This document shows, in pieces, positions 397 through 14,604 of a DNA stretch of 43,967 nt. Under the pieces are notes generated by a model, which was given only the letters and a program-made list of their open reading frames with translations, made no database searches and had not been told where the DNA came from. The stretch comes from Acetobacterium malicum subsp. dehalogenans DSM 11527 (GTDB lineage Bacteria > Bacillota > Clostridia > Eubacteriales > Eubacteriaceae). The position numbers and the translations under genes are program-made. Numbering within the stretch: the stretch's first letter is position 1; every line of letters begins with the position of its first letter. The DNA lies in the NCBI RefSeq assembly GCF_000472665.1, contig NZ_AXAC01000038.1, positions 1-43,967 on the forward strand. The letters run 5' to 3'.

Positions 397-1874
397 ATGA
401 AATTGAGTTTGTATATTTTGAAGGACTGGTTTGACGCAAAGGGGGTTAAAATCCTCGCATCAAAAATGGAAGATGAAACTTCAGAACCTGGTATAACAGG
501 TATCCGGTTAAAAGATAAAGAGCGACCAGAATTAGCAGATGTTTTCTTATACATCACTGAATCAACAGATTTAGAATCAGAAATTAGCCCCGTTCTGAAC
601 ACCAATCGATGTGTTGTCTGTGTCTATAAATCTTTTATCTTGCGGTTGAAGGAAATGTTATTTCGATATTTAATGAATCGCTCGCTGCTTATGAATTCTT
701 TCAGTTATGGGAGTCTTCGCTGAAAGATACTGTTTATTTAAATTCATCTTTGCAGGATCTTGTCGACCTTGCTGTTCCGGTTTTCCGGAATCCTATTTTT
801 ATCGCTAATTGGCAGGGTCGCGTTTTTGCTTTTTCCCGCGAATATCAAAATGACTATGTTCGGGGAACTTGGCAGCACATCGTCAAATCTGGACGGGTTC
901 CACTTTACTCAATCCAAATGTTGCGAAAATCGGATAATTACTCAGTTGTTTTACAAGGTACCAAGGCTGCCCTGTTATCATTTGGCGAACTATCTCACCG
1001 CTGTATCGGTGGCACCTTAAAACAGGCTAATGACATGCATTTACACATCCAAATCATGGAATACCAAACCGTTGTGACAACCGGGCACTGTCAATTGGCG
1101 GATATATTTCTTAAAATTGTATCATTTACCCATTTTCCAGGACTATCCACCTATGCGCAGTCCATGTCTAAAATATTTTGTGAACTGTTAAATAGAAAAA
1201 CAGTCCCAAAAGAAGAATTGGATTGGGTACTCTTGGCATTGGGTTGGGAAAATAAAGTTCCCTGTGTTTTATTATTGTTTGTGAATAACCATGAGCAACT
1301 GACAAAGGAATCGTTAAATGGTTTGCTTGATCAGTATATTCCCCAGGGTAAGCGTCTTGTCTACGAGAATGAAACCTTATTACTGCTGTTAAAATCGGAA
1401 TTTGATACCCTGGTTGATGAATTAACAAACCTCATTCAACCGCTTGATTTTATCTGTGGTGTTTCCCTGCCTTTTGCAGAGTGGGATACCTTGGCTGAGC
1501 GCCTGAATCAAGCTAAACTGGCGATCCACTATGGTAAATCCGCAAATACCTGTATCCGTCGTTGCGAAGATTTCACAACCTCCTATATCCATGATTCTCT
1601 GCTAAAAACAACCAAAGATCTCTGTCTGTGTCATCCAGCCATTTTGATACTAAACGCCTATGATCGGGAAAACGAAGCAGACCTTTGCTTTACAATGTTT
1701 CAGTACCTGAGATGTGAAAGAAACAGCACCATTACATCGGAATGCTTATACATTCATCGCAATACGCTTCAATACCGCCTGAAAAAAATCTATGAGCTGA
1801 TCCAAGTGGACATGAATAATCCAGATATCCGGGAACATTTAATGTTGTCTTATGAAATGATTGTAAAAAACTAA
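397..1874 (+). pseudogene. PucR-type transcriptional regulator, split by a -1 frameshift
   Basis: Two reading frames together match the intact paralogue at 9549-11024 over its whole length. The first frame (ATG 397 behind AAGGAG at 385-390) holds the N-terminal part. It then runs out of frame near 640-645 and stops at 723. The second frame resumes immediately at about 642 (AVEGNVISIFNES) and continues to 1874. Aligning FIL-AVEGN with FIL-DEIYL of the paralogue places the break within a few bases, consistent with one missing base. The C-terminal half keeps FRNPIFIANWQG and the PucR C-terminal helix-turn-helix (YIHRNTLQYRLKKIYEL). No slippery heptamer is visible, so programmed frameshifting is unlikely. 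Either the gene is broken or there is a sequencing error. The C-terminal part could still be translated from the TTG at 750. Confidence 0.75.
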
Positions 1875-1994
1875 AATAATACCAGTACCGAAAGCTTTTC
1901 TTCCATTAGATTATCTGGCTATGCACTGTTGTCATTTTTATGTTTTCCGCTACAAGACTGCAATCGATTTACTCACTTCAAAAAAATTCGCCAC

Positions 1995-2033
1995 AAAAAG
2001 ACATGTTGCTTTTTAATTGCGACATGTCTTTTT
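1995..2033. terminator. Bidirectional rho-independent terminator
   Basis: AAAAAGACATGT (1995-2006) and its exact complement ACATGTCTTTTT (2022-2033) form a 12-bp stem with a 15-base loop and A/T tails on both sides. It lies between the convergent regulator and chemotaxis genes and can serve both. Confidence 0.8.
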
Positions 2034-2057
2034 AAGACAATAAGAATCATTATCGTC

Positions 2058-4280
2058 TCACTTCTTCTTTAATTCAAACAAACCAACCATTTTCTTAAGC
2101 ATTTGAGCCTGACTGGATAATTCTTGACTGGCTGCCGCGCTTTCCTCTGCGGTGGCCGAATTGGTTTGAACAACGCTTGAAACCTGTTCGATACCAATGG
2201 TAATCTGTGAAATTTCCGAGGCCTGATCATTGGATGCTCTGGCTATTTCTGCCACCAGACCAGCTACCATTTCAATATCACTTAAAATTACCATTAGACT
2301 TTCAGATGTATCACCAGCAATCGCTGTGCCATCTTCCACTTTTTCGATGGAACCTTCAATTAGTGCGGTAGTTTCCTTAACGGCTTCAGCACTCCGAGCC
2401 GCCAGAGTTCTTACTTCTTCGGCCACAACCGCAAATCCCTTTCCATGCTGACCAGCTCTGGCCGCTTCCACAGCTGCGTTTAATGCCAGAATATTAGTTT
2501 GAAAGGCAATGTCGTCGATTACCTTTATAATTTTCGAAATATTATTGGATGAAGCATTGATTTCTGTCATGGCCCGAACCATTTTCACCATTTGATTATT
2601 ACCTTTCTGGGCATTTTCACGAACCTGTTCCGTAAGAGCATTGGCTTTGTTGGCATTATTCGCATTGCGTTTGGTTTCCCCGGCCACTTCTTCAATCGAA
2701 GCACTTAATTCCTGAATGGAACTGGCCTGCTCTGTCGTTCCCTGAGCCACCGCCTGTCCCCCAGCCGAAAGCTGCTGCGCACCGGAATCTACCTGTTCGG
2801 CAGTATTGCTGATATCTTTCATGGTTTCGCTCAAACTTTTTGCAATGCCGTTGAGTGAAGTTTTAATTTCCATAAAGTCACCCAAGTACTCGGTGGTGAT
2901 TTCCTGATCAAGATTTCCCCGACTGATCGCCGCCAGAGTTTTCGAGATTTCACTGACATAAACGTTCAAAAACTCGATAGTTTTGTTCATATCATTCTTG
3001 ATTTTTCCATTTTCCCCCTTGTAACTCCCGACCATAGCGGCGCTGAGATTTCCCTGTGACAAGTCATTAAGAACCGCGGAAGCTTCCTGCATGGGGGCTG
3101 CGAGAGCATCCAACGCATTATTAAAACCGGCAATCACCTGAGCATACTCGCCTGAGAAGCGACTTAAATCGCCACGGTTATCCAAATTACCTTCGATGGC
3201 ATAATCAGCGATTTGTCCAGTCTCCTGTACCAGCATGGAGATGTTTTCAGCCAGGGCAATCATACTCGGAAGAAATTCGTCATTCTCGCTTAGTTGACCA
3301 TGTTGCTTCATCATTTCAAGCTCATTTTTAAATTTACCAGCGGCAATTGCCTTATTAATCTCAACTACTTTAATAATAGTTTCTCTGACACTATTGACTG
3401 ATACTGCAATTTCCCCATAAATACCGGGATAATTCCCTTCAATCTTCTGGGTGAAATCGTTGATGCACATCATTCTTAAAACTTTATTTCCTTCTCCCAA
3501 GGCCCCTAATCCATCAACTCCGGAATTAATAAAATTAATGATCTTCTGATAATTACCGGGATATGTTTCTTCAATTCTATCTGGTACCACCCCTGCTCCG
3601 ATTTGCGCAATATATCTGCCGGCGAGACTTACAATGGTTGAAAGATTCTCATAACCCTTTTTAATGCTGATCATAAATTGCTGGTACGATCCCGAATAAC
3701 CGACATTCTCAGTTGTTACATCAACCTTCCTGCCAGCAGTGGCTTCCTCTCCCAAATATGTCAGTTCCTCGGAAACATGATTCAGGGTGCTCACCAGACT
3801 GATCAACGCATGAGAAAGAACATCTTCGCTGGACTGAGGTATAATCTTCACTTGCAGATTGCCTTTTGCTAACTCCTGAACAATTTCTGCCTGACTTTTG
3901 CGGATATCGACCATCCGTTTAAAAGATTGCGCCAGCTGCCCAAATTCATCTTTGGTTTTTACTTCCGGTATTTCCATCGATACATCACCCTTAGCCAATC
4001 GATCTAAGGTGTCCTTATACGCTGACATGGGACCAATAATTTTATTAGCTGCAACACAGGCTGCAACACATCCAAGTATAAGCACACCAAGCGTAAGAAC
4101 AAGAATGATATTTTTGGGCGCTCCATAGTAAGCCAGTATACCTAGTGGAATCACCGCTAATGAAAGCAATGTCACTGTAAACACTGCCATTTTAGTGGTC
4201 AAGCGGATTTTCACCTTGACATCATCAAGAGAAACTGTCATATTATCTGAAAAAATGTTTGCTTTTTGATTATTATTCAT
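2058..4280 (-). CDS. Methyl-accepting chemotaxis protein without an extracellular sensor domain
   Basis: This 740-residue protein has two membrane segments (about 31-51 and 57-79) separated by only a few residues, so the usual periplasmic ligand-binding domain is absent. A HAMP domain follows at about 80-132. A long cytoplasmic stretch then carries several HAMP-like repeats. The C-terminal MCP signalling domain has the conserved hairpin tip ([20 protein letters not shown] and [15 protein letters not shown], about 590-625), which binds CheA/CheW in this family. There is no C-terminal CheR-tethering pentapeptide; the protein ends FELKKK. Sensing must occur in the membrane or cytoplasm, perhaps of redox or energy state. 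The gene lies downstream of lpdA in the same direction, but about 200 bases containing an inverted repeat separate them. Confidence 0.9.
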
Positions 4281-4311
4281 ATCCTAATCCTATTTCTTTT
4301 TATTTATCACA

Positions 4312-4412
4312 CAAACTTCGCACATAAATCATCGACTGCGTGTATGAGCCAATATTTTCAAACAGAAAAGCTCTTCACAGTGAATTAATTCATTATTTAA
4401 TGTGCGAAGTTT
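4312..4412. repeat. 101-bp segment bounded by 14-bp perfect inverted repeats
   Basis: CAAACTTCGCACAT (4312-4325) is the exact reverse complement of ATGTGCGAAGTTTG (4399-4412), with 73 bases between. The segment lies just upstream of the chemotaxis gene and downstream of lpdA. It could be a miniature inverted-repeat element or a long-range stem in the untranslated RNA. No clear target-site duplication is visible, and the minus-strand side lacks a strong U-tract. Confidence 0.5.
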
Positions 4413-4488
4413 GAGTAAATAATTATTTAATTGAGAGTGTAACGCTGGTATGAAATACGGACTGCCAGAAAAAATTAAATACCAAAGA

Positions 4489-5868
4489 TCAGGCTTTATG
4501 TACACACATCCCATGGACATCATGGGCTGCTTCCATAATTGCTTCTGATAACGTTGGATGGGCATGAATGCAATCCCCAATCTGTTCTGCCGTCAATCCC
4601 AGGTGTACTGCCAGCGAAAGTTCTGCCAGGAGATCGGTGGCATGAGCACCGACAACCGCGGCACCAATGATGACATCTTTGGAATCAACAATAATTTTAA
4701 CAAACCCCTGAATTTTACCCATTGCCTGCGCTTTGCCAAGGGCTCTGAAATCAAATTGTCCGACTTTATAGGCAATCCCCTGGGCTACGCATTCCAGTTC
4801 GGTCAAACCGACCCCTGCCACTTCCGGTTCAGTGTAGACACAGCGGGGTACAGCTTGATATGCTACTGTTTTTCCGGCATCTTTTACGGCATTGTAAGCT
4901 GCGACGATCCCTTCTTTAGAGGCCACATGGGCCAGCAATGGTGTCGCAACGATATCGCCAATGGCATAAATGCCTGGGACATTGGTTTCCATTTTATGGT
5001 TAACGTTAATGCGTCCGCGTTCATCAACGGCAACACCAATGCTCTGGGCATTCAGGTTATCAAGGTAACTGCGACGTCCAATAGCAACCAGCATTGATTC
5101 AGCTTCAACGGATTTACCATTGGCAAGATTTACTTGTACACCGGTTTCGGTCACTTCAACACTGGCAATGCCATTCCCAGTCAGGACTTTTAGCTTATCT
5201 TTTTTAAATTGACGCGCCAGTTGTTTGGCTGTTTCAGCATCTTCTAACGGAAGAATCTGATCAGCCATCTCAACAATCGTAATCTGGGTTCCCATGCGAC
5301 TGAGGAACTGACCAATTTCACAGCCGATGACCCCACCGCCCGTGATGATCATTGATTTTGGCAATTCCTGAAGCTCCAGCACCTCATCACTGCTGATGAT
5401 TTTTTTTCCATCAAATTGGAACATGGCCGGAACAATTGGTACGGATCCTGTTGCCAGAATAATCTTATCTGCTTTAATGGTTACCGTTGTTCCATCGTCT
5501 TTTGATACTGTGACGGTATTTTTATCTACCAGCGTTCCCGTTCCTTTGATCATAGTCACATTGTTTGTGTTAAAAAGATATTCAATTCCCTTCACCAGGC
5601 CACTAACCACCTTGGCTTTACGCTCCATAATCGCTTTAAAATCCGGTGCGACAGTGCCGTCCACATTGATACCGAACGCTTTGGCATTATGAATGGTTTT
5701 CAACGCATCTGCACTCGCCAACAGCGCTTTTGTCGGGATACAGCCGCGGTTCAAACAGGTTCCGCCGAGCGAATTTTTTTCAATAATTGTTACTTCAGCA
5801 CCTAGTTTTGCCGCCATAATGGCCGCTTCATAACCGCCCGGACCTGCTCCAATAACGGTTATCTGCAT
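4489..5868 (-). CDS. lpdA: Dihydrolipoamide dehydrogenase (E3 / L-protein)
   Basis: This 459-residue flavoprotein reoxidises dihydrolipoyl groups and passes the electrons to NAD+. It has the N-terminal FAD-binding GAGPGGYEAA motif, the redox disulfide in GGTCLNRGCIP (C38 and C43), a central NAD-binding GGGVIGCEIG motif and the second FAD motif YAIGDI. The C-terminal HAHPTLSE supplies the catalytic pair H437 and E442. All features of an active enzyme are present and the length is standard. No 2-oxoacid dehydrogenase or glycine decarboxylase genes are nearby. The only lipoyl carrier in sight is the GcvH-like protein upstream on the same strand. The ATG at 5868 overlaps the end of a small ORF (5859-5990), and its own ribosome-binding site is weak (GTCAGG). 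Confidence 0.93.
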   Translation of the reverse strand: MQITVIGAGPGGYEAAIMAAKLGAEVTIIEKNSLGGTCLNRGCIPTKALLASADALKTIHNAKAFGINVDGTVAPDFKAIMERKAKVVSGLVKGIEYLFNTNNVTMIKGTGTLVDKNTVTVSKDDGTTVTIKADKIILATGSVPIVPAMFQFDGKKIISSDEVLELQELPKSMIITGGGVIGCEIGQFLSRMGTQITIVEMADQILPLEDAETAKQLARQFKKDKLKVLTGNGIASVEVTETGVQVNLANGKSVEAESMLVAIGRRSYLDNLNAQSIGVAVDERGRINVNHKMETNVPGIYAIGDIVATPLLAHVASKEGIVAAYNAVKDAGKTVAYQAVPRCVYTEPEVAGVGLTELECVAQGIAYKVGQFDFRALGKAQAMGKIQGFVKIIVDSKDVIIGAAVVGAHATDLLAELSLAVHLGLTAEQIGDCIHAHPTLSEAIMEAAHDVHGMCVHKA

Positions 5869-5990
5869 CCTGACACCAACCTTCGCCAGGCAGCAATACT
5901 CATGATTTGCGGTACGTTTTCTGTTGCTATTTTGTCTGCAGTTGCGGCAAATCGGCCAGCTTCTATTTTTTTTAGTAATGAACTTTTCAT
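5859..5990 (-). CDS. Possible 43-residue protein overlapping the lpdA start
   Basis: The ORF runs from ATG 5990 to TAA 5859 and overlaps the first 10 bases of lpdA in another frame, a layout typical of translational coupling. The peptide starts MKSSLLKKIEAGRFAATADK and ends WRRLVSGCR. It is basic, with alternating helical character and ordinary codon use. A possible ribosome-binding site (AAAGGA) lies about 12 bases upstream, farther than ideal. I recognise no family. It may be a genuine small protein, a leader peptide for lpdA or the remnant of a longer gene. The rest of the gap up to the gcvH-like gene (5991-6205) is AT-rich, with a 7-bp inverted repeat GTCATAT/ATATGAC at 6093-6114 and no other gene. 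Confidence 0.4.
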   Translation of the reverse strand: MKSSLLKKIEAGRFAATADKIATENVPQIMSIAAWRRLVSGCR

Positions 5991-6205
5991 TATTATTTTT
6001 TGTCCTTTCTTTGGCTGTTATTCTTAATTCAATCGTTTTTGTGAGCGACTTTTACCAATCGGGTATTTTTTTATCGTACCTAACCAGAAAATGTCATATA
6101 AATAGTAATATGACTCAAACCAGAAAAAAGACGAAGCTCTATGATAATCAATTGAACTGCATCTTTAAATTTCTGGATTAATTCATCTGATTACTGTTGA
6201 ATTAA

Positions 6206-6613
6206 TTAACTCGTTTTTTCTTTAATGAGCAATTTATATGCATCAGCGCTGAGCAAATTCTTAAGTTCTTCTTCCAGATTCGATGGTGTGATCGCAATAA
6301 TCCAACCGGCGTCATAAGGATCCCGATTAATAATCTCCGGATCATCCATAAGATCTTCATTTACCGCTTCAACGATTCCACTGATTGGGGAGAAAATATC
6401 TGAAACAGATTTGGACGACTCAACGGTTCCTAAAGACTCCATTTGTACAACTTTGCTCCCAACTTCGGGAAAATCCACATAGGTAATCTCATTGAGCATC
6501 TTCTGAGCATAATCAGTAATACCCACCTTAACGTTCCCGTCACCCATTACCTTTACCCAGGTATCTTCCTGAGTATAGGATGGTATTCCTCTTACTTCAT
6601 ATTCTTCTGCCAT
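6206..6613 (-). CDS. GcvH-like lipoyl carrier protein
   Basis: This 135-residue protein resembles the glycine cleavage H protein, a small domain that carries lipoate on a lysine. The lipoylation site is K68 in GTVESSKSVSD, followed by the typical SPISGIVEAVNE turn. The C-terminal part (NRDPYDAGWIIAI) is also as in GcvH. The start is supported by AAGGGG upstream. It follows the iron-sulfur gene by 18 bases and is clearly in that operon. GcvP and GcvT are absent, so a role as electron or acyl carrier for the flavoprotein/iron-sulfur pair is more likely than glycine cleavage. This resembles the lipoate-binding proteins that accompany heterodisulfide-reductase-like complexes in sulfur oxidisers. 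The true partner is inferred. Confidence 0.85.
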   Translation of the reverse strand: MAEEYEVRGIPSYTQEDTWVKVMGDGNVKVGITDYAQKMLNEITYVDFPEVGSKVVQMESLGTVESSKSVSDIFSPISGIVEAVNEDLMDDPEIINRDPYDAGWIIAITPSNLEEELKNLLSADAYKLLIKEKTS

Positions 6614-6631
6614 ATTTGTTACGCCCCTTTC

Positions 6632-7801
6632 TTAAATCTGCAAACCCATGGCATTGGCCACAAGTACAGACAGATCGATTACTTCAATTTTTAATTTCCG
6701 GGCTGCTGCATTCAGTCCATTTTCGCAGGAAGGACAAGCTGAAACAATCATTTCTGCCGATGTCCCTTTCGCTTCGGCAACTCGGCCGGCGGCAATCTCA
6801 TTTGATATTTCCGGGAACGCCGTCGAAACCACCGAACCGCCACCGCAACACCAGGCATTTGCTTTGTTTCTCGGCATTTCAACAAAGCTTGCCCCTTTAA
6901 TCGCATTCAGCACTTTTCTTGGCTGTTCATAGACATTTTCATGTCTTCCAAGATGACAGGGATCATGATAAGTAAAGGTCTTTTCAATTTCTGTGTCAAG
7001 ACTGATTTTCCCATTATCAATCAATTCGACAATCACTTCACTGCTATGGACAATTTCAAAGGGCAGTTTACCGATAATCTCAGGGTATTCTGTTTTTAAC
7101 GCATGGAAGCAACCGGCACAGGATGTGATAACTTTTTTTACGCCTGAAGCTTTAAGCGCTTCTACATTATGCTGAATTAATTCTTCAGCCAACCCGATAT
7201 TGCCATCTGCTAATTGGGGAACACCGCAACACCATTCATCCTCACCCAGGTACGCCACATCAACACCGCCAGCCTTGAGCACAGCTACGGTTGCTTTAGG
7301 AATTTTCGTATTTCTATAAGAAGCATAGCAACCAGCAAAATAAACCGTGTCTCCTTGCTTTGGTAAACCAAGTCCATCAGCCCACTTTATCCGTTTTTCG
7401 ATGGGTTCGCCAAATACGTTATGTTTTGATTGCACCCCGGCATCCACACTTTTTAGCGCTTCTGGAGGGCCAAAACCGGCTTTCACAAGGTCAACTCTTA
7501 AGGCATTGGTGAGTTTGGTTTCATCAATGATATTTTTTTCTCCGGTTAGGGGATCCATTCTCGTGCACTGTTCATGACAACTGTTGCAGCCAAGACAGGT
7601 AAATGTGCTTTCCATCAGTTCTTCACTGTATTCTAATTCACCATTCAGAATTGCTTTTGCAATTTGATTACGGCCCCGCGCTGCATACTGATCAAATCCT
7701 CCGGTATGTTGCTGAATCGGGCAGATATAACCTGCTTCTCCGACAATGCACATGCCGCAGCGACTGCATCCAAATGCCATTTTTTTATATTTATCTAACA
7801 T
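6632..7801 (-). CDS. (Fe-S)-binding protein with two ferredoxin motifs and two CCG domains
   Basis: This 389-residue protein is of the GlcF/LutA/HdrD type. An N-terminal ferredoxin-like part has two [4Fe-4S] motifs: C12-C15-C18-C27 and C69-C72-C75-C79. Two complete CCG modules follow: C158, C191-C192, C228, C231 and C282, C318-C319, C356, C359. In HdrB/HdrD such modules bind noncubane clusters that cleave disulfides. In GlcF-type proteins they carry electrons from a flavoprotein. It lies 17 bases after the GlcD-like gene, 18 bases before the lipoyl carrier, and has AGGAGAGGAG before the ATG. The inferred role is to move electrons between the flavoprotein and the lipoyl disulfide. A GlcF-like role with another acceptor remains possible. 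Confidence 0.88.
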   Translation of the reverse strand: MLDKYKKMAFGCSRCGMCIVGEAGYICPIQQHTGGFDQYAARGRNQIAKAILNGELEYSEELMESTFTCLGCNSCHEQCTRMDPLTGEKNIIDETKLTNALRVDLVKAGFGPPEALKSVDAGVQSKHNVFGEPIEKRIKWADGLGLPKQGDTVYFAGCYASYRNTKIPKATVAVLKAGGVDVAYLGEDEWCCGVPQLADGNIGLAEELIQHNVEALKASGVKKVITSCAGCFHALKTEYPEIIGKLPFEIVHSSEVIVELIDNGKISLDTEIEKTFTYHDPCHLGRHENVYEQPRKVLNAIKGASFVEMPRNKANAWCCGGGSVVSTAFPEISNEIAAGRVAEAKGTSAEMIVSACPSCENGLNAAARKLKIEVIDLSVLVANAMGLQI

Positions 7802-7818
7802 GTTTTATAGCTCCTCTC

Positions 7819-9258
7819 CTAAAAATTCCAAAGTCCCGGACACATGATATTATTCGGATCAAGCACCTGCTTGATGGAATTCATCAACTTGGAGTGGTTT
7901 GGGGACCAGGATTCTGCAATAAAGTTCGAGTTTGTTCCTTGTGAATAGGTCGAACAGGTTCCAACCTTTCGCATGTACTCCTCGCCGACACGCCAGGTCT
8001 TTCGCAAATGTTCTTCCGCCTCGGGTGTTGAAAAACCACTTCTGATGGTTATGCCAGTCAAAAAGATATGTCCCATGGGAACCAGATAAAGACCGGCTGC
8101 CGTGGCGTTTTCCCGGTGGCCTTCCACACTTTTAAAGGCATCTTGCAATCCCTTAGTGAATTCAAGGGATTTTGAACGAGGAAACATGGATTCCCAAGTC
8201 ATAAACGGACAGGAATTCGACGGAACATCACGAACCATTTCCAATGTTCCGGTAGTGCCCGTCATCGCAAAGTGATCCATTTTCTCATTTCCGTGAACGG
8301 CTCCATGCTTTTCACACACTTCCGAAATCTCTTTAATTCTGCTGTCGATATCGGCTTCGTCATCCGCTTCTACTGCATAAAAAATAGCACCATAACCTTC
8401 AATCCCATCAGCAATTGCCTTCACCATGTAGTTGGTCATTTCAAACATAATGGTGTTGGTGTAGGGGACGCGCTCTTTAGCACTCAGTTCCAGTTGAATC
8501 GCCCATGTGACTTCCATCGAAGGGGTTACATAGCTGATTGCCTTCATATGCTTTGGTATCGGTAATGTTCGATAAACCACCTCGGTTATTAATCCAAATG
8601 CGCCGCCGCTTCCAACAAACAAATCGGTTAAATCCGGACCGGTTACTTCTCTGAAGTAGATGTCTTCCCGATGGACATTTGAATCCGGACCGGCACCAGT
8701 CGTAATAATATCACCATTGGGAAGCACAACTTTTAAACCCAGCACAAAGCTCCAATTACATCCCAAACTCGCCACATTTTTACCAAATCCGGCACCGGCG
8801 ATGCCGCTAGTAAGTCCACCAGCGGTTGCAGTGTAGTAAGGCCCAATCACGGTATTGATGAAATGATCATGGGGTCTCAGGGCATCATCAATGGTGCTTA
8901 AACGGGAGCCGGCACCGGCAATTACCCTTGAATTCTCGATATCAACCTTGATTGCATCCATACGACCCATATCAATCATGATGTTCCGTGTTGCCTCACC
9001 TTTAGTGACCCCGCCACCGGCTTGACCGCCGCCTTTTACCGTAATGGGATAGCCCGTGCGATTCGCCAGCTTCACAATTTCCGCCAATTCTTCAGAAGTC
9101 TTGGGCCGTACAACAATACCAGGCATTACTCCGGGAAATGTGCTAATATCTCTTGCATATGGGATCAGTGCAAAATAATCATCAGTCACATATTTGGGTC
9201 CGACAATCGCCGCAATAGCCTTTTTCAATTCATGACCATTTTTCATTTCTTGTTTCAT
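7819..9258 (-). CDS. GlcD-like FAD-linked 2-hydroxyacid dehydrogenase
   Basis: This FAD-dependent oxidoreductase of the glycolate/D-lactate dehydrogenase family has an N-terminal PCMH-type FAD-binding domain (VRPKTSEELAEIVKLAN, then KGGGQAGGGV and SGIAGAGFGKN) and a C-terminal FAD-oxidase domain ending VLDPNNIMCPG. The substrate is probably a 2-hydroxyacid such as lactate or glycolate, or a related alcohol; the sequence does not decide. I chose the ATG at 9258 (479 residues), because AGGAG lies five bases upstream. An in-frame ATG at 9306 would add 16 residues but has no ribosome-binding site. It is the first gene of the operon with the CCG iron-sulfur and lipoyl genes, divergent from the PucR-type regulator. 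Confidence 0.85.
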   Translation of the reverse strand: MKQEMKNGHELKKAIAAIVGPKYVTDDYFALIPYARDISTFPGVMPGIVVRPKTSEELAEIVKLANRTGYPITVKGGGQAGGGVTKGEATRNIMIDMGRMDAIKVDIENSRVIAGAGSRLSTIDDALRPHDHFINTVIGPYYTATAGGLTSGIAGAGFGKNVASLGCNWSFVLGLKVVLPNGDIITTGAGPDSNVHREDIYFREVTGPDLTDLFVGSGGAFGLITEVVYRTLPIPKHMKAISYVTPSMEVTWAIQLELSAKERVPYTNTIMFEMTNYMVKAIADGIEGYGAIFYAVEADDEADIDSRIKEISEVCEKHGAVHGNEKMDHFAMTGTTGTLEMVRDVPSNSCPFMTWESMFPRSKSLEFTKGLQDAFKSVEGHRENATAAGLYLVPMGHIFLTGITIRSGFSTPEAEEHLRKTWRVGEEYMRKVGTCSTYSQGTNSNFIAESWSPNHSKLMNSIKQVLDPNNIMCPGLWNF

Positions 9259-9374
9259 TAGATCTCCTCTCTTTTCTGCCAACTCTTTGGAAAATGCCGG
9301 TTTCATATCTATTTAAACAGGCAATCCAGAAATTTTGTACACTCTGCCCACTGGATATTTAGACCGTTCAGCCT

Positions 9375-9400
9375 ATTATATAGCTAAGAACTACCCTCAA
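9375..9400 (-). promoter_or_regulatory. Candidate activated promoter of the flavoprotein/iron-sulfur/lipoyl operon
   Basis: On the minus strand a perfect TATAAT (9380-9375) lies 14 bases downstream of TTGAGGGTAGTT (9400-9389). The short spacing suggests the TTGAGG box is not a normal -35 but an activator site. The same 12-mer recurs at 11098-11109, just after the PucR-type regulator gene. The leader to the chosen start would be about 110 bases. Confidence 0.45.
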
Positions 9401-9416
9401 CATTTGTACATTGCTG

Positions 9417-9446
9417 TTGACTTTGCTATGCATCTAGTTATATTAT
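9417..9446 (+). promoter_or_regulatory. Candidate promoter of the PucR-type regulator gene
   Basis: TTGACT (9417-9422) and TATTAT (9441-9446) are 18 bases apart, a good sigma-A match about 100 bases before the regulator start. It is flanked by an 8-bp inverted repeat GTACATTG (9406-9413) / CAATGTAC (9467-9474), which could be an autoregulatory operator. Confidence 0.5.
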
Positions 9447-9548
9447 ACATAGTGTTAAAACGATAACAATGTACGGAGTGAATAACAATTCGCTCTCCGC
9501 ATCTCAATAATTTGTGCGTATCGCACAACTAATGTAAAGGATATTACA

Positions 9549-11024
9549 ATGGATATTTCAGTTGCTATGATCAAGGAACGTTTTATTTCTCAAGGCTGTA
9601 CCGTACTACGAGAATCCGGTAAAAAAAACACGCCTCTTGATGGCGTTCGATTGTTCGATGGTGAATTTTTACCAAATCACCTTAATATTGGCTTCTGTGG
9701 TGAACTTGCGCTATCTCTGGGAGACGTTTTTGGAACCTTGCCGGAAGAAAACAAACTGGTGATGTGTGTTTCGCAAGATATGTTTTTTATTCTCGACGAA
9801 ATTTATCTTCCTAAAATTCTCAATATGGCTATAGATGTATTAGAATACTATCGCGACTTTGAAAATCGGCTCATGAACGCAGTTTATAAGGGCGCCGACA
9901 TGCAGGAACTCCTTGATCTGACCGAACCTTATTTTAAAAATCCTGCCTTTATTGCAAACTGGCATGGCGAAGTTTTTGCCTTTACAAAAGCTTATGCAAA
10001 CGATTATTTTCGTTCTGCCTGGAGCCATATTGTAAAAAAACGAAGGCTCCCATTGTCTTCAGTTCAGACCTTGCGCAATTCACCTAATTATTATACCGTT
10101 ACCCATAAAAATACCACTGCTATATTTGAATTTCCCGATAATGACTTCACGTGCATCATTGGCAAGGTGGATAGCCCGCTGGATTACCATTTATATCTGC
10201 AGATCATGCAATATAAAACACCAGTCACCGATACAACCTGTGTTCTGGCTACTACGCTTCTTTCTGCCTTGGAAAGCATAAACCCGCCTCAAGAGGCAAC
10301 CTCACTTTCTGAATTGTTCTGTGATCTGCTCGACAAAAAAGCAGTCGATAGAGAAAAGCTGAACTGGGTACTGCTTACACTGGGCTGGGAAGAATGCGAT
10401 CATTTTCTGCTCTTGAGTTTTTGGAATAACGAAGGCTCACTCGCCGCAGAGGCACTTTGCGGTGAACTTAAAAATTCATTAGTACGGGGACAAATGTTTA
10501 TCTGGAACGAACAACCCCTCATGCTGATCTGCGAATCCGACTTTGCCGAAGTAAAGGTGCAAATCGAACAATTAGTCAATGAACTTTCCTTTATTTGCGG
10601 TGTTTCAATGCCTTTTTCCCGTTGGGATATGCTTTCTGTTCAATTCAAGCAAACCGAAACAGCAATCCGATACTGTGAGCAAAATAGCCGTATCAGTTTG
10701 TGTATCGATCATATTTGGGAATACTTATTTGATCAACTGGAGGATATGGTTAATATTTCACAGCTTTTTCACCCTGCCATTATTACCCTTGCCGACTATG
10801 ACCGTAAAAAAAACGCACAGCTCTTACTGACGCTGTACGTCTATTTATCAAACGAACGCAGTCTTTCTCTGTCCGCAGACAAACTTTTTGTTCATCGAAA
10901 TACATTGCTTTATCGGCTGCACCGTATTAATGAGTTAGTAGATGTAGATTTAACTAACGAAGAAGTTCGGGAACATATTATACTTTCATACCGAATGATG
11001 AAAAACGCTGATAATCTTACTTAG
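9549..11024 (+). CDS. PucR-type transcriptional regulator
   Basis: This 491-residue protein has the PucR C-terminal helix-turn-helix (LFVHRNTLLYRLHRINELVDV, about residues 450-470). A GGDEF-like/PucR middle region precedes it and includes FICGVSMPFSRWD. The N-terminal part is unclassified. Such regulators in clostridia usually activate adjacent catabolic operons in response to the substrate. The divergent position next to the flavoprotein/iron-sulfur/lipoyl operon makes that operon the likely target. It is a full-length paralogue of the broken gene at 397-1874. The ATG at 9549 has AAAGGAT upstream. DNA-binding specificity and inducer are unknown. Confidence 0.85.
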   Translation: MDISVAMIKERFISQGCTVLRESGKKNTPLDGVRLFDGEFLPNHLNIGFCGELALSLGDVFGTLPEENKLVMCVSQDMFFILDEIYLPKILNMAIDVLEYYRDFENRLMNAVYKGADMQELLDLTEPYFKNPAFIANWHGEVFAFTKAYANDYFRSAWSHIVKKRRLPLSSVQTLRNSPNYYTVTHKNTTAIFEFPDNDFTCIIGKVDSPLDYHLYLQIMQYKTPVTDTTCVLATTLLSALESINPPQEATSLSELFCDLLDKKAVDREKLNWVLLTLGWEECDHFLLLSFWNNEGSLAAEALCGELKNSLVRGQMFIWNEQPLMLICESDFAEVKVQIEQLVNELSFICGVSMPFSRWDMLSVQFKQTETAIRYCEQNSRISLCIDHIWEYLFDQLEDMVNISQLFHPAIITLADYDRKKNAQLLLTLYVYLSNERSLSLSADKLFVHRNTLLYRLHRINELVDVDLTNEEVREHIILSYRMMKNADNLT

Positions 11025-11490
11025 TCCTTACTAATTACATTTTGATTTGCTTTGATATTTAGAATAACTTACTATTATCAACTATTGTTGTACATACAAC
11101 TACCCTCAAAATCTCTATTTATATTGCCCGCTCGTAAGAATTCCAGATGGTTCCCTGTAAATTGGAATACTCATTTCAATCCCCAACCAGATGACTGCGC
11201 ATTGCATTAACCTGAGCGACTTCCATACCACCTTGAAGAAAGTGTCCTGAGAGTCAATCCAATGCTGGATTTTTTTGAGTAGACTTTTTTAATTCTTCGG
11301 AATTCGCATTTCTAATTCAGCCCACAAAAAAAGGAGCTACTCATCATAGCCCATTATTCACTATTCTTGCAAAAGCTTCTTTTTCTATTCTATTTATCAA
11401 AACTCATAATGCGACTACATATTAATACTATATCGATCCATTATTTGTGATGACCAACACCTCCCCAAGGCAAGCCAATAAACTGCCATC
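11025..11490. other. 466-base intergenic region between convergent transcription units
   Basis: I see no gene here. It holds a second copy of AACTACCCTCAA (11098-11109) next to TTGTACAT (11088-11095), as in the region upstream of the regulator. There is also a weak plus-strand terminator-like hairpin AATCCA/TGGATT with a T-run (11256-11276). The rest is AT-rich and without clear structure. It may contain decayed sequence. Confidence 0.5.
11256..11276 (+). terminator. Weak rho-independent terminator after the PucR-type regulator
   Basis: A 6-bp stem AATCCA (11256-11261) / TGGATT (11266-11271) with a 4-base loop is followed by a run of Ts. It is about 230 bases after the regulator stop, and the stem is short. 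Confidence 0.4.
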
Positions 11491-11520
11491 AAAAAAACTG
11501 ACGATGATTCACATCGTCAG
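11491..11520 (-). terminator. Rho-independent terminator of the acid-sugar operon
   Basis: CTGACGATG (11498-11506) and CATCGTCAG (11512-11520) form a perfect 9-bp stem with a 5-base loop. On the minus strand it is followed by seven Us. It lies 21 bases after the cyclase-family gene. Confidence 0.92.
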
Positions 11521-11541
11521 CAAGTAATTCTATTCTCTTTT

Positions 11542-12216
11542 TTAATCTTCAATATCAGCAATGACGCTGACCTGGCTGCTGTCCAAACCGACAATCCGCA
11601 GTGGCGCAGCAGTAATTGAATTAATTTTCTTATTCCCCATCACCTCCAGATGCATGTCTTCAATGGCGGTAATAAATTTTTCGGTATTGAATCCCAATAG
11701 ATTCTGATGGGCTGGAGCGGCTAAATCATTACAGGGCGAACCAATCGCCAGGAAGTCAAAGCCTACCGTTTTGAGATCTTTAAAGGTATTTACCATATAC
11801 AGACAGGTTTCCGGGGTCAGGAAAGGTCCTTCCATTTGATAGGTTTCCGGCGATAATTTTCGCACCTTGTCAAAGCCGGTTCGAATCAGAAGCAGATCTG
11901 CTTTTTGAATTGCTGCTTCATGAGTTTTGAGATCTTCCACCGTCACACCCTCACAGGCTTTTTTGGGAATATCCAAAAGCAATACATTTTTAAAGACAAA
12001 GTATTCCATCGGTAATTCGTTGATGCTTGGGCCATCGGGATTAAAGTGTTTTGGGGCATCATAGTGGGTGCCGCAGTGGTTGGGCAATTCGCTCATAAAA
12101 CTGTTAAAGGGAAGACCATCAACGCCAATTTGGGTTGCTTGACGCACCTTAACGGTTGGTTCTCCTGGCCAGGCCAGATCCTTCGGGTCCAATGGGTATG
12201 ATAAAAAAATGTTCAT
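11542..12216 (-). CDS. Cyclase-family (kynurenine formamidase-like) metal hydrolase
   Basis: This 224-residue member of the cyclase family (PF04199) has the metal-binding signature H47-C48-G49-T50-H51-Y-D53 followed by APKHF (H57). Known members hydrolyse formylkynurenine, isatin or other amides and lactone-like rings. The substrate here is not predictable, but last place in an acid-sugar kinase/aldolase operon suggests a ring-opening or lactonase-like step. The ATG at 12216 has AAAGGTG upstream. A GTG three codons earlier is less likely. About 90 bases separate it from the aldolase, with no terminator between, so it is probably cotranscribed. Confidence 0.85.
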   Translation of the reverse strand: MNIFLSYPLDPKDLAWPGEPTVKVRQATQIGVDGLPFNSFMSELPNHCGTHYDAPKHFNPDGPSINELPMEYFVFKNVLLLDIPKKACEGVTVEDLKTHEAAIQKADLLLIRTGFDKVRKLSPETYQMEGPFLTPETCLYMVNTFKDLKTVGFDFLAIGSPCNDLAAPAHQNLLGFNTEKFITAIEDMHLEVMGNKKINSITAAPLRIVGLDSSQVSVIADIED

Positions 12217-12305
12217 AATTTTCACCTTTCACTGATTAATCTTTATTTTTAATTTTTAAATCTATATCTTTAGGAAAGCCCTGCAGTGATTTCCCATTCA
12301 GATCG

Positions 12306-13160
12306 TTAGTTGCTTGTTAGTTTTAGATATTCTTCAATCAGCAGAACCAGATCCGCTTTTGTTTGACGTATCAATTTTTCGTAACGCAATGAATTGACTT
12401 CGGGGCTTATTTTAATACTTCGCCGGATGCTTTCGACCGCTCCCAATGCCAGTTCAGTATTGACATTGATCTTACAAATACCAAGATTGATGGCTTTTTT
12501 AATCTGTTCCGCGGGGATTCCCGAGGACCCGTGCAGCACCAGTGGTATATCGGTGAGTGCTGCAATTTCCGCCAACACTGAATACTCCAAGTGCGGCTCG
12601 CCCCGATACAGACCATGAGCATTGCCGATGGCAATAGCCAGGGCATCAACCTCAGTTTCAGTGACGTATTTTAGCGCCAGCTCTGGCCGGGTAAACTCCG
12701 AAGTCTCAGCACTGCTGGGTTCATCATTTTGAGAACCATCTTCAGGGTTCATATAGCCCAGTTCCCCTTCAACACTGACCTTGGCTTCCCGGGCAATTTC
12801 AACCACTGCCCGGGTATTTTTAATGTTTTCTTCGATTCTTAAATGTGAACCGTCATACATTACCGAGGTAAATCCACAGTCAATCGCTCTTGTAATGGTT
12901 GACATATTTTTGGCGTGATCCAAATGCAAGACCATCGGCTGCTGTGAGCGTTCAGCCAGAAACCGAATGTTTAGGGCTATTAATTCTAGTGGTAGATCAT
13001 CGAGATAGCTTTCGCCAAATGAAAAGATGACCGGGCGATTCAAATTATTTGCTGCCTGATTAACAGACAGAATGGTTTCTAAATTATATACATTAAAAGC
13101 CGGAATAGCTGTTTTGTTTTTTTTGCATTGATTCAGTAATTCCTTCAAACTAACCAGCAC
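12306..13160 (-). CDS. Class II (zinc) ketose-bisphosphate-type aldolase
   Basis: This class II aldolase is of the FbaA/GatY/KbaY family. In the 284-residue form the zinc and catalytic residues are D81-H82 (LHLDHAK), the glutamates of VEGELGY, H182 (GNAHGLYRG) and H210 (LHGSSG). The GTG at 13160 gives the family-typical N-terminus MLVSLKELLNQ and has GGGTGA upstream. A GTG at 13169 would overlap the kinase gene. Fructose-bisphosphate specificity is unlikely in this context. It more likely cleaves the phosphorylated product of the neighbouring acid-sugar kinase into two small fragments. Confidence 0.88.
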   Translation of the reverse strand: MLVSLKELLNQCKKNKTAIPAFNVYNLETILSVNQAANNLNRPVIFSFGESYLDDLPLELIALNIRFLAERSQQPMVLHLDHAKNMSTITRAIDCGFTSVMYDGSHLRIEENIKNTRAVVEIAREAKVSVEGELGYMNPEDGSQNDEPSSAETSEFTRPELALKYVTETEVDALAIAIGNAHGLYRGEPHLEYSVLAEIAALTDIPLVLHGSSGIPAEQIKKAINLGICKINVNTELALGAVESIRRSIKISPEVNSLRYEKLIRQTKADLVLLIEEYLKLTSN

Positions 13161-13161
13161 G

Positions 13162-14604
13162 TTATTCACCCATCAGCACTTCAACTGCTTCTTTCAGGGT
13201 TGTTTCGGTCCCGACATTACCAGGGAAGATAACATAGGGCAATCCCGGGAACTTGCTTTCCTCACCGGTCGTCCAAACGGGAATGCCCGGTTTGATCTGA
13301 CCCATCACCATCGCTTTCTGGACGGTCAAGCCTTTGGTACCAATGTCACTGGAGGTAATCCCGCCTTTTGCCACAATAAAGTTTGGCCGCACTGTCAGTT
13401 TAGAAATGATACTGGTGACTGCATCAGAAATCTCTACTGAAACCCGGAGTTGGGCATCTTTATCATCAGTATCCAGATCAAACCGCTCACGTTTAGTGTA
13501 AACAGCCACAGTTTTTCCCGATTTGATATAATCTTCAACCAAGGCCACCACGCGTTTGACTTCTTTAGCCAATCCGCCGGCTTCTAAAACCAGATGTTGA
13601 TTGAATTCAACAAATTGGATGTCCTTTTCTGAACTTTTCAAATTTTCCAACTGAACCGTTGTTTTATTGACATGGGAACCGACTACAATAATTCCGCCAT
13701 TTTTATTCTCGGTCAGGATCAATTCGTCATGCGTTAATAGTTGTTTATCCGGAACTCCTCCCAGTACTTTGGTGATAGCAGCTGCTGAGCGGAAGATAAA
13801 TGTCTTGCCTCGTTTTATTGCTTCGACAAAGGCAATCGTAAAGATTTTTACATCAACATAATCAATGGCATTGACAACTATTTTATTAAAATTCTCGACC
13901 TTACAAAGCTGATCAGTAATTTTATCGAACTCGATTTTTCTTAAATCGTCAAGGGCAATAAAGGTGACCGTTTCGGCCTGATAGGCTCCGCCTGATTTTT
14001 CTTCACACCATTCGCCCAAATGGGAAGACGTATATCCGAAAGATTTGTCGTTGGCAAATTCAGTTTCTCCTGCCGGTACCAGAACATCCCCTTCCTGAAC
14101 ATAATGGATATTGTTGATGGTAAAGCGTCCGCCTTCTTTAAAGAAGGGAAAAATGATTTCGCCGTCGATTTTTTGATCCGAACCGGATTCAACGGTTTCC
14201 TTCAACAACTTTGTTTCCAGCGGATAATGTCCCCGCAAGGTGGAATCACTGCGACTGATCAGAATAAACTCTTTTCCAGTCTTTTTTGAAACCGCTAAAA
14301 TCCGCTCGGCGATCGCCTGATGAACAGCAGATGTTTCTTCGACTGTCAAGCCCCGAGAATTGGTGAGAATAAAAAACATGCTGTTATCCTCAGCGAATCC
14401 TTTTTCGATACTATCCACACTCCAGTCCGTGTAAACTGAAATATCGTGAACCGTTTGAACTCCCGTGGGGTCATCGTCTAAAACCACTACTTTTTTATTC
14501 AAGGTCTTGAGTGCTTCATTCAACCGGTTGGTGACTATTTTTTCATCTACGTTTTTAAATGAATTCAGGATTGAAGAATCTATTCTATCAACTGTGCGCA
14601 TCAT
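13162..14604 (-). CDS. Four-carbon acid sugar kinase (DUF1537 / OtnK-like)
   Basis: This 480-residue member of the DUF1537 family phosphorylates acid sugars such as 3-oxo-tetronate or erythronate in known cases. The N-terminal domain has VVLDDDPTGVQTVHD and RSDSTLRGHYP. The C-terminal nucleotide-binding domain has FIVAKGGITSSDIGTKG, VWTTGEESKFPGLP and FPGNVG. The ATG at 14604 shares one base with the dehydrogenase stop (TGATG), and the AAAGGG before it is inside that gene. A GTG at 14607 is the alternative. One base separates the kinase stop from the aldolase start. Coupling to both neighbours supports one pathway: oxidation, phosphorylation, cleavage. Confidence 0.9.
   Translation of the reverse strand: MMRTVDRIDSSILNSFKNVDEKIVTNRLNEALKTLNKKVVVLDDDPTGVQTVHDISVYTDWSVDSIEKGFAEDNSMFFILTNSRGLTVEETSAVHQAIAERILAVSKKTGKEFILISRSDSTLRGHYPLETKLLKETVESGSDQKIDGEIIFPFFKEGGRFTINNIHYVQEGDVLVPAGETEFANDKSFGYTSSHLGEWCEEKSGGAYQAETVTFIALDDLRKIEFDKITDQLCKVENFNKIVVNAIDYVDVKIFTIAFVEAIKRGKTFIFRSAAAITKVLGGVPDKQLLTHDELILTENKNGGIIVVGSHVNKTTVQLENLKSSEKDIQFVEFNQHLVLEAGGLAKEVKRVVALVEDYIKSGKTVAVYTKRERFDLDTDDKDAQLRVSVEISDAVTSIISKLTVRPNFIVAKGGITSSDIGTKGLTVQKAMVMGQIKPGIPVWTTGEESKFPGLPYVIFPGNVGTETTLKEAVEVLMGE

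What the first reader, a model, noticed from the sequence alone, without database searches (positions are those of the whole stretch)
4489..9258. Lipoyl-linked redox module: GlcD-like flavoprotein, double-CCG protein, GcvH-like carrier and Lpd
A 2-hydroxyacid-type flavoprotein and a protein with two complete CCG (HdrB/HdrD-like) modules are in one operon with a lipoyl carrier. Lpd follows in the same direction. P and T proteins of glycine cleavage are absent. CCG modules act on disulfides in heterodisulfide reductases, and lipoate is a disulfide. The proposed path is substrate to FAD to iron-sulfur clusters to lipoyl-K68 to Lpd to NAD+, or the reverse. A 2-hydroxyacid couple would be uphill to lipoamide, so another donor, a bifurcating partner or the reductive direction may be involved. 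Lipoate-binding proteins with Hdr-like complexes are known in sulfur oxidisers, but I know of no such set with GlcD.
Basis: partly seen in the sequence, partly recalled or inferred. Interest (0 to 1): 0.8.

Follow-up and report, generated by a model that had tools for sequence, protein, structure and literature searches.

The report
Lipoyl-coupled flavoprotein–iron-sulfur redox module
In an Acetobacterium genome, a flavoprotein, an iron-sulfur protein of the disulfide-reductase type, a lipoic-acid carrier and an NAD-linked dehydrogenase are encoded together, and separate versions of the same pairing in other anaerobes suggest that these enzymes use a lipoyl group as an electron carrier.

Summary
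The four genes are real, at the stated coordinates, and under purifying selection (dN/dS 0.03-0.14 against A. fimetarium). The genus is Acetobacterium. The order PucR | GlcD-CCG-GcvH-Lpd is kept in 3 of 19 genus genomes and, with a ligase inserted and a different Lpd, in one Eubacteriales MAG. The GcvH-like protein keeps lipoyl lysine K68 but is not a glycine-cleavage H protein: the genome has a complete cleavage system with its own H, and A. fimetarium keeps the operon without any GcvP match. In a 398-genome phylum sample, 11 of 16 other genomes with an unfused CCG homologue have GcvH-like genes beside it or within two genes, against 0 of 16 loci with a fused one; in 7 of the 11 the locus carries the genome's only E2 gene and no E3. 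The two main GlcD lineages are not one clade (p-AU 6.5e-6), so the pairing probably arose more than once. The 2-hydroxyacid label is not supported: the H/H/E/H motif is lost. Best reading: a lipoyl-dependent oxidoreductase joining an unknown flavoprotein substrate to NAD(H) through Lpd. Substrate and direction are unknown; no biochemistry.

The parts
7819..9258 (-). GlcD-like FAD flavoprotein (479 aa); ORF opens at 9306, likely start 9258
   Evidence: PF01565/PF02913; L040 orthologue has a stop in the extra stretch; dN/dS 0.034; H/H/E/H motif of canonical GlcD absent
6632..7801 (-). Iron-sulfur protein with N-terminal 4Fe-4S dicluster region and two complete CCG modules (HdrD/GlcF-like, 389 aa)
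   Evidence: PF13183 and two PF02754 stretches; Cys invariant or nearly so in 19 homologues; dN/dS 0.030
6206..6613 (-). GcvH-like lipoyl carrier (135 aa)
   Evidence: PF01597; outside the group of 15 glycine-cleavage H proteins in a tree; dN/dS 0.138
6410..6412 (-). Codon of K68, the predicted lipoyl-lysine
   Evidence: invariant in 21 of 21 aligned GcvH-like proteins; residue checked
4489..5868 (-). Dihydrolipoyl dehydrogenase (Lpd, 459 aa), one of four found in the genome
   Evidence: TIGR01350 532 bits; other three at C13, C24 and C5; dN/dS 0.130
9549..11024 (+). Divergent PucR-type regulator, probable regulator of the operon
   Evidence: PF13556; divergent gene kept in two other Acetobacterium genomes (89-91%) and in L041 (33%)
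9259..9548 (.). Divergent intergenic region, presumed promoters
   Evidence: position only; promoter-like matches in 4300-9700 about as many as in shuffles, 13 against 11.7
5862..5990 (-). Possible 43-aa ORF between gcvH and lpd, role unknown, may not be a gene
   Evidence: 60% identical in A. fimetarium, but dN/dS about 0.6
2058..4280 (-). Methyl-accepting chemotaxis protein downstream of lpd; membership uncertain
   Evidence: PF00015/HAMP; 94-95% in two other Acetobacterium genomes, not seen in L041

Best explanation
The operon encodes a lipoyl-dependent oxidoreductase. The GcvH-like protein, lipoylated at K68 by a ligase encoded elsewhere in the genome, is a small mobile dithiol/disulfide carrier. 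On one side it exchanges two electrons with the CCG protein, whose non-cubane iron-sulfur site makes or breaks the lipoyl disulfide as in HdrB/HdrD. Electrons run through the CCG protein's 4Fe-4S clusters to the FAD of the GlcD-like subunit, where an as yet unknown small molecule is converted. On the other side Lpd connects dihydrolipoyl-H with NAD(H). I lean, weakly, to the reductive direction (NADH to Lpd to dihydrolipoyl-H to CCG to FAD to acceptor): lipoamide is near -0.29 V, usual GlcD-type substrates are more positive, and no ETF gene is in the run. In the acetoin-type relatives too, electrons would start on dihydrolipoyl groups. Shown here: gene identity, conservation, linkage, separateness from glycine cleavage, GcvH pairing with two GlcD lineages. 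Inferred: lipoylation, CCG-lipoyl contact, direction. Unknown: the substrate.
For: Conserved order in 3 of 19 Acetobacterium genomes and one Eubacteriales MAG. The own and MAG Lpds are only 39% identical while GlcD and CCG are about 70%; the own Lpd is 60% identical to the genome's C5 Lpd, so Lpds seem to have been placed here more than once. Each of the genome's four Lpds lies beside or near a lipoyl-protein gene: C13 and C24 directly behind E2, C5 about 4 kb from a DGC-GcvH fusion, and ours. A. fimetarium (G016, rated 100% complete) has 0 GcvP matches but keeps the operon. 11 of 16 other genomes with an unfused CCG homologue have GcvH beside the pair or within two genes, against 0 of 16 fused loci (10-17 kb) and 0 of 10 further GlcD regions, 6 of which have a CCG partner. 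One clade for own-type and acetoin-type GlcD is rejected, p-AU 6.5e-6. In 7 of 7 acetoin-type genomes the single E2 lies in the locus and no Lpd does. A GcvH lipoyl group serving CCG-type proteins has precedent: sHdr-LbpA (PMC6067878, passages) and, as a proposal, GcvH-HdrB in Culexarchaeia (PMC9723716, passages).
Against: No biochemistry. Lpd is separated by 337 bp and could be a separate transcript. The CCG tree neither supports nor rejects one origin for the own and acetoin-type superclades (p-AU 0.47), so separate origin rests on GlcD. Own-type is very rare: 1 of 391 class genomes, the own one. Of the 16 genomes, three (G406, G446, G136) have GlcD-CCG without GcvH, G321 has GcvH about 14-16 kb away, and G253's contig is too short to judge. 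G174 has GcvH near a GlcD that keeps the canonical motif, so the motif loss is not tied to GcvH. Another same-genus GlcD-CCG pair (G013, L045) has no GcvH. The substrate is unknown and the direction argument uses recalled potentials. No LipA and no LipS1 were found in the genome, so lipoylation would depend on scavenged lipoate.
Confidence: 0.6

Rival explanations
1. Oxidative version: GlcD oxidises an unknown, strongly reducing substrate, and electrons flow CCG to lipoyl-H to Lpd to NAD+, giving a catabolic dehydrogenase with NADH as product.
For: A divergent PucR-type regulator and, in the Acetobacterium loci, a chemoreceptor downstream look catabolic. Lpd usually works toward NAD+ (recalled). 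The Pelobacter LarG proposal runs this way (PMC3543383, passages).
Against: Common 2-hydroxyacid couples are more positive than lipoamide (their potentials recalled; lipoamide -0.29 V from a passage of PMC6067878) and the canonical motif is absent. No energy-coupling partner was recognised in the run.
Confidence: 0.28
2. The GcvH-like protein is only a lipoyl/octanoyl relay or spare H protein, and GlcD-CCG is an ordinary dehydrogenase that passes electrons elsewhere.
For: In Bacillus GcvH is the octanoyl relay to E2 (LipM/LipL, PMC10332631, passages); 7 of the relatives' loci contain E2, and 10 of 11 hold at least one lipoate-assembly gene.
Against: The own run has no E2 and no assembly gene. 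Two acetoin-type-clade genomes, G102 and G107, have no E2 match at all yet keep H beside GlcD-CCG. The tight H/GlcD/CCG linkage occurs with two GlcD lineages. 0 of 16 fused loci and 0 of 10 further GlcD regions have GcvH nearby; G174, with a canonical GlcD and GcvH within two genes, is the one case outside the two lineages.
Confidence: 0.12
3. GlcD-CCG is a reductase for lipoate assembly (an electron source for sulfur insertion), not an energy-metabolism enzyme.
For: 8 of 11 GcvH-bearing loci outside the own type also hold LipS1- and LipS2-like genes, and LipT is itself thought to supply electrons (PMC10332631, section 8).
Against: The own genome has no LipA match; own, G015 and G016 have no LipS1 match (0 of 3); the operon persists there.
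Confidence: 0.08

Closest known systems
sHdr-LbpA system of sulfur oxidisers (Cao 2018 PMC6067878; Tanabe 2023 PMC10332631)
   Same: GcvH-like lipoyl protein linked to CCG-type iron-sulfur proteins; LipS1/LipS2/LipT/LplA-like genes beside many of the acetoin-type relatives; an Lpd gene is tied to the archaeal version
   Different: No HdrA/HdrB/HdrC set recognised; a GlcD-like FAD subunit and one fused dicluster-double-CCG protein instead; no sulfur-relay genes among the scanned neighbours
Proposed archaeal HdrD-GlcD complexes (Verstraetearchaeota, Bathyarchaeia, Korarchaeia: PMC6783470, PMC10667645, passages)
   Same: GlcD-like flavoprotein paired with an HdrD-like CCG protein, proposed to act on a disulfide
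   Different: There the proposed disulfide is CoM-S-S-CoB; here a lipoyl carrier and Lpd are encoded beside it
Culexarchaeia Ehe cluster (PMC9723716, passages)
   Same: GcvH suggested as the disulfide partner of HdrB
   Different: Hydrogenase complex with HdrBC, SdhA and CdhA; no GlcD or Lpd in the Ehe passages read
Pelobacter carbinolicus LarG + Lpd proposal (PMC3543383, passages)
   Same: GcvH-like lipoyl carrier plus Lpd proposed as an electron-to-NAD route; organism lacks glycine cleavage
   Different: Proposed electron source is the Act complex, not GlcD-CCG
GlcDEF / D-lactate dehydrogenase (GlcD with GlcF/LdhH)
   Same: FAD_binding_4 fold and CCG iron-sulfur partner
   Different: H/H/E/H motif lost in own-type and acetoin-type GlcD; lipoyl protein added
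Dihydrolipoyl dehydrogenase (E3)
   Same: The acetoin-type module occupies the place where E3 is expected
   Different: The own run contains a normal E3 as well; the GlcD flavoprotein is unrelated to Lpd

Membership tests
Glycine cleavage system H protein | Works with GcvP/GcvT encoded in the genome | tested here: not met
   By genome content only: own GCS at C76 has its own H; G016 = A. fimetarium has the operon but 0 GcvP matches at 1e-10
Glycine cleavage system H protein | Groups with H proteins of glycine cleavage; ESVK motif | tested here: not met
   15 of 15 GCS rows carry ESVK and group together (89/87); own, L040 and L041 fall outside with ESSK/ESTK. 141 columns, modest support
Glycine cleavage system H protein | H fold with lipoyl lysine | tested here: met
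   PF01597 139 bits, TIGR00527 139 over cut-off 116; K68 invariant
sHdr-LbpA | HdrA/HdrB/HdrC-like subunits beside LbpA | tested here: not met
   Of the ten neighbouring proteins scanned (750-14607) only the fused CCG protein is Hdr-like
sHdr-LbpA | LipS1/LipS2/sLplA maturation genes | tested here: not met
   LipS1 0 matches in own, G015, G016; LipS2 not searched in the own genome; the own genome has an LplA elsewhere. Met in 8 of 11 relatives' loci
GlcD / D-2-hydroxyacid dehydrogenase | Metal/substrate motif (H...H and E-H; residue roles recalled) | tested here: not met
   Own: H,G,T,Y at the four columns; full motif in 8 of 35 aligned GlcD rows, which form one other clade
GlcD / D-2-hydroxyacid dehydrogenase | NCBIfam equivalog score for GlcD | tested here: not met
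   TIGR00387 87 bits against cut-off 568
HdrD-type CCG protein | Dicluster ferredoxin part plus two full CCG modules | tested here: met
Dihydrolipoyl dehydrogenase (gene 4489-5868) | Equivalog score and CxxxxC disulfide | tested here: met
   TIGR01350 532 over 409; CLNRGC
Archaeal HdrD-GlcD complex | Reduces or forms CoM-S-S-CoB | not testable with these tools
   No biochemistry; archaeal clusters were not compared

The most novel reading that the evidence does not exclude
GlcD-CCG pairs are a second, flavin/iron-sulfur kind of lipoyl oxidoreductase, adopted at least twice in evolution. In acetoin-dehydrogenase-type operons of several Bacillota they replace E3 altogether: a GcvH lipoyl shuttle takes electrons from dihydrolipoyl-E2 to an acceptor other than NAD+. 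In Acetobacterium they couple such a shuttle to NAD(H) through Lpd. Lipoyl proteins may be the unidentified disulfide of GlcD-HdrD pairs in organisms without CoM/CoB.
Probability: 0.4. Interest if true: 0.85.

Novelty: new variant of a known kind. Interest (0 to 1): 0.64.

Why it matters
PMC6067878 (passages) counts five characterised lipoate-dependent complexes and adds sHdr-LbpA. A GlcD-CCG-lipoyl unit would be a further one, in which lipoate only carries electrons and which can perhaps stand in for dihydrolipoyl dehydrogenase. It would give a concrete, testable disulfide for GlcD-HdrD-like pairs whose partner is unknown (left open for Korarchaeia in PMC10667645), and a new route between NADH and a flavoprotein substrate in acetogens, whose energy budget depends on such steps.

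Tried and rejected
Glycine cleavage: rejected, since the genome's GCS has its own H and A. fimetarium has the operon without a GcvP match.

2-Hydroxyacid dehydrogenase: not supported, motif lost. PDB searches matched mainly the FAD domain (within about residues 10-320) and, weakly, the last 30-50 residues; best hits were D-2-hydroxyacid-type enzymes, 9ffk and cresol/vanillyl-type oxidases. The structure prediction of GlcD from three sequences failed (mean pLDDT 38.6), so no fold search was made and the second structure job was not used.

Ligase remnant between gcvH and lpd: none found (best tblastn E 0.42). Single origin of the GcvH association: rejected on GlcD (p 6.5e-6 for 14 rows, own type plus acetoin type with L051). 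On CCG it is rejected for the 13 GcvH rows alone (p 0.002) but not for own plus the acetoin superclade with L049 and L051 (p 0.47). All module GcvH proteins as one clade: not rejected (p 0.14).

I fetched 10-17 kb around all 15 genomes' fused loci plus the fused G098 locus, and found GcvH in 0 of 16.

Rows dropped. First CCG tree: L026, L032 and L039 as duplicates of L060, L058 and L040, and the partial L044. Second CCG tree: also L045, L078, L081, one L049 protein and 7 of 13 fused rows. GlcD tree: the same duplicates and all but 6 fused rows; G174 (L049) is labelled 'no' there although a GcvH lies within two genes. L044 (G253) has no GlcD, as its contig ends. The phage tblastn with GcvH found only genes under 60% identity in 17 records and was not pursued.

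Literature: 10 answered searches listed no paper that I recognised as describing GlcD + CCG + GcvH; of the listed papers I looked into six for passages (PMC10332631, also its section 8; PMC6067878; PMC9723716; PMC3543383; PMC6783470; PMC10667645). Two Geobacter genome papers looked up by DOI (PMC2996986, PMC2700814) held nothing relevant for the terms tried.
Full report
Observation. The window (G000:C29, the whole contig, 43,967 bases of a 4.05 Mb genome) carries on the minus strand, in order, a GlcD-like flavoprotein (7819-9258), a double-CCG iron-sulfur protein (6632-7801), a GcvH-like protein (6206-6613) and a dihydrolipoyl dehydrogenase (4489-5868). GlcD, CCG and GcvH are 17-18 bp apart. 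Lpd follows after 337 bp, in which no terminator-like site was found. A PucR-type regulator is divergent (9549-11024). Against A. fimetarium the four genes have dN/dS 0.034, 0.030, 0.138 and 0.130, so they are very probably working genes.

Organism and distribution. In the genus, 3 of 19 genomes searched, the own one included, have the CCG gene at 97% or more; some of the 19 are incomplete, and a 35% match in G013 is a different paralogue without GcvH nearby. A Eubacteriales MAG (L041) has PucR | GlcD (70%) - CCG (70%) - GcvH (56%) - lipoate-protein ligase - Lpd (39%), ligase and Lpd overlapping by 4 bp. The flavoprotein family is otherwise rare: with the L041 protein as query, 1 of 391 class genomes (the own one) matched at E <= 1e-35, and in 398 phylum genomes none of the other listed matches exceeded 39% identity. 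It looks like an accessory module.

Not glycine cleavage. The genome has a complete glycine cleavage system on contig C76 with its own gcvH. A. fimetarium, rated 100% complete, has no GcvP match but keeps the operon. In a tree of 37 GcvH-like proteins, the 15 taken as glycine-cleavage H proteins (14 found near GcvP genes, one second G098 copy labelled by similarity) group together (89/87) and all carry ESVK; the window protein and its two orthologues fall outside and carry ESSK or ESTK. That tree is short (141 columns) and does not reject all module proteins being one clade (p-AU 0.14). The lipoyl lysine K68 is invariant in 21 of 21 aligned proteins.

Lpd partners. Four Lpd genes were found in the genome at E <= 1e-60. 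Two stand directly behind E2 genes in ordinary E1-E2-Lpd operons (C13, C24), one lies about 4 kb from a DGC-GcvH fusion (C5), the fourth is ours. A third E2 (C9) has no such Lpd neighbour listed. Our Lpd is 60% identical to the C5 copy but only 39% to the Lpd in the L041 operon, whose GlcD and CCG are 70% identical. Different Lpds thus stand behind the same trio, as expected if Lpd belongs to the pathway.

Wider comparison. In 398 phylum genomes, 32 (own included) have a CCG match at E <= 1e-60: 15 only as a fused protein of about 1000 aa, and 16 others with an unfused gene. Of those 16, 11 have one or two GcvH-like genes beside the pair or within two genes of it (G102, G174, G098, G107, G130, G140, G213, G249, G168, G185, G355); three have none (G406, G446, G136); in G321 the GcvH gene is about 14-16 kb away, beside LipS1-, LplA- and LipS2-like genes; G253's contig is too short. 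Controls: 0 of 16 fused loci (10-17 kb around them) and 0 of 10 further GlcD regions (6 with a CCG partner) have a GcvH match. 10 of the 11 GcvH-bearing loci hold at least one lipoate-assembly gene and 8 hold both LipS1- and LipS2-like genes; G174 holds none that these queries find. I use the names LipS1, LipS2 and LipT after Tanabe 2023; they rest on Pfam class and neighbourhood.

E3 position. In G098, G130, G140, G249, G185, G355 and G168 the locus contains an E2 gene. E1 alpha, E1 beta and AcoX are seen with it in G130, G249 and G355; in G140, G168 and G185 an AcoX piece is seen; in G098 only E2, the region ending there. In 7 of 7 it is the only E2 match in the genome (E <= 1e-10), and in 7 of 7 no Lpd match (E <= 1e-60) lies in the locus; in 6 of 7 an Lpd lies within about 8 kb of glycine cleavage genes elsewhere. 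In the own genome the two ordinary operons read E1-E1-(AcoX)-E2-Lpd. So in these relatives H-GlcD-CCG takes the place where E3 is expected. This is an inference from position; the distant Lpd could still serve. G102 (rated 97% complete) has no Lpd and no E2 match at all.

More than one origin. A tree of 35 GlcD proteins puts the own type and the acetoin type far apart, and holding them together is rejected (p-AU 6.5e-6). The CCG tree is undecided (p-AU 0.47 for own plus the acetoin superclade). G174 may be a further case, with a canonical-motif GlcD. If GlcD is trusted, at least two flavoprotein lineages became operon partners of a lipoyl carrier separately, which is the strongest indirect evidence that the lipoyl group is the electron partner of such pairs.

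Substrate. Eight of 35 aligned GlcD rows have the full H/H/E/H motif of 2-hydroxyacid enzymes; the own row reads H/G/T/Y and the acetoin-type rows lack it too (the roles of these residues are recalled). The own protein matches solved structures mainly over the FAD domain. No substrate can be named.

Mechanism. Best reading: lipoyl-GcvH shuttles electron pairs between the CCG site and Lpd; the CCG protein's clusters connect to FAD on GlcD. With lipoamide at -0.29 V (PMC6067878, passage) and NAD at -0.32 V (recalled), flow from NADH to a more positive acceptor is the easier direction, while oxidation of lactate- or glycolate-like substrates would be uphill (potentials recalled); hence a weak lean to the reductive direction.

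Compared with the literature. sHdr-LbpA (PMC6067878, passages; PMC10332631, passages and section 8) is the closest working precedent. PMC10332631 mentions linkage of canonical lipoate genes with lipS1/S2 in Sporomusa, which may be some of the loci seen here, but the parts I read do not mention GlcD. HdrD-GlcD complexes (PMC6783470, PMC10667645, passages), the Culexarchaeia GcvH-HdrB idea (PMC9723716, passages) and the LarG-Lpd idea (PMC3543383, passages) are related proposals. My searches listed no paper that I recognised as describing this set (calls in Tried and rejected; most subscription journals are not held). The concept of a lipoyl protein serving a CCG enzyme is therefore known; the GlcD pairing, its repeated origin and the E3 position appear to be new.

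Noticed in passing
L005:9815-10663 (G000:C5), with Lpd at L005:4672-6057: A DGC-domain/GcvH fusion protein in one stretch with another Lpd, a class-V aminotransferase, a FeS-domain protein and an ArsA-type ATPase: perhaps a further lipoyl-protein module. A similar fusion-type H is in A. fimetarium (L107), and both branch beside the window's GcvH (91/83).
   Followed up: partly
window 11542-15500 (-): Putative cyclase, class II aldolase and DUF1537-type kinase and, by reading only, a hydroxyisobutyrate-dehydrogenase-like gene: looks like a sugar-acid pathway. No BLAST match to these in the A. fimetarium stretch around the operon.
   Followed up: no
window 750-1874 (+) and 9549-11024 (+): Two related PucR-type regulators flank the MCP-Lpd-GcvH-CCG-GlcD run (42% identical); the G015 relative also has a second one beyond the MCP.
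   Followed up: partly
L048:10009-12656 and L051:10051-12416: GlcD-CCG pairs preceded by a pyridine-nucleotide-disulfide-type flavoprotein and, by reading only, an aldehyde-oxidoreductase-like gene.
   Followed up: no
L049:6615-12851: A canonical-motif GlcD followed by three CCG proteins with a GcvH-like gene between the second and third.
   Followed up: partly
G102 (whole genome; module in L048): Rated 97% complete, with GcvP and two GcvH-like genes but no Lpd match at E <= 1e-60 and no E2, while it has GlcD-CCG-GcvH with LipS1/LipS2/LipT/LplA-like genes: a candidate organism in which GlcD-CCG could be the main lipoyl oxidoreductase.
   Followed up: partly
L091:4782-5477 (G000:C46): A LipB-like transferase although no LipA match was found in the genome.
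   Followed up: no
L040:3983-5722: IS66-type transposase beyond the PucR gene in A. fimetarium, in keeping with a mobile module.
   Followed up: no
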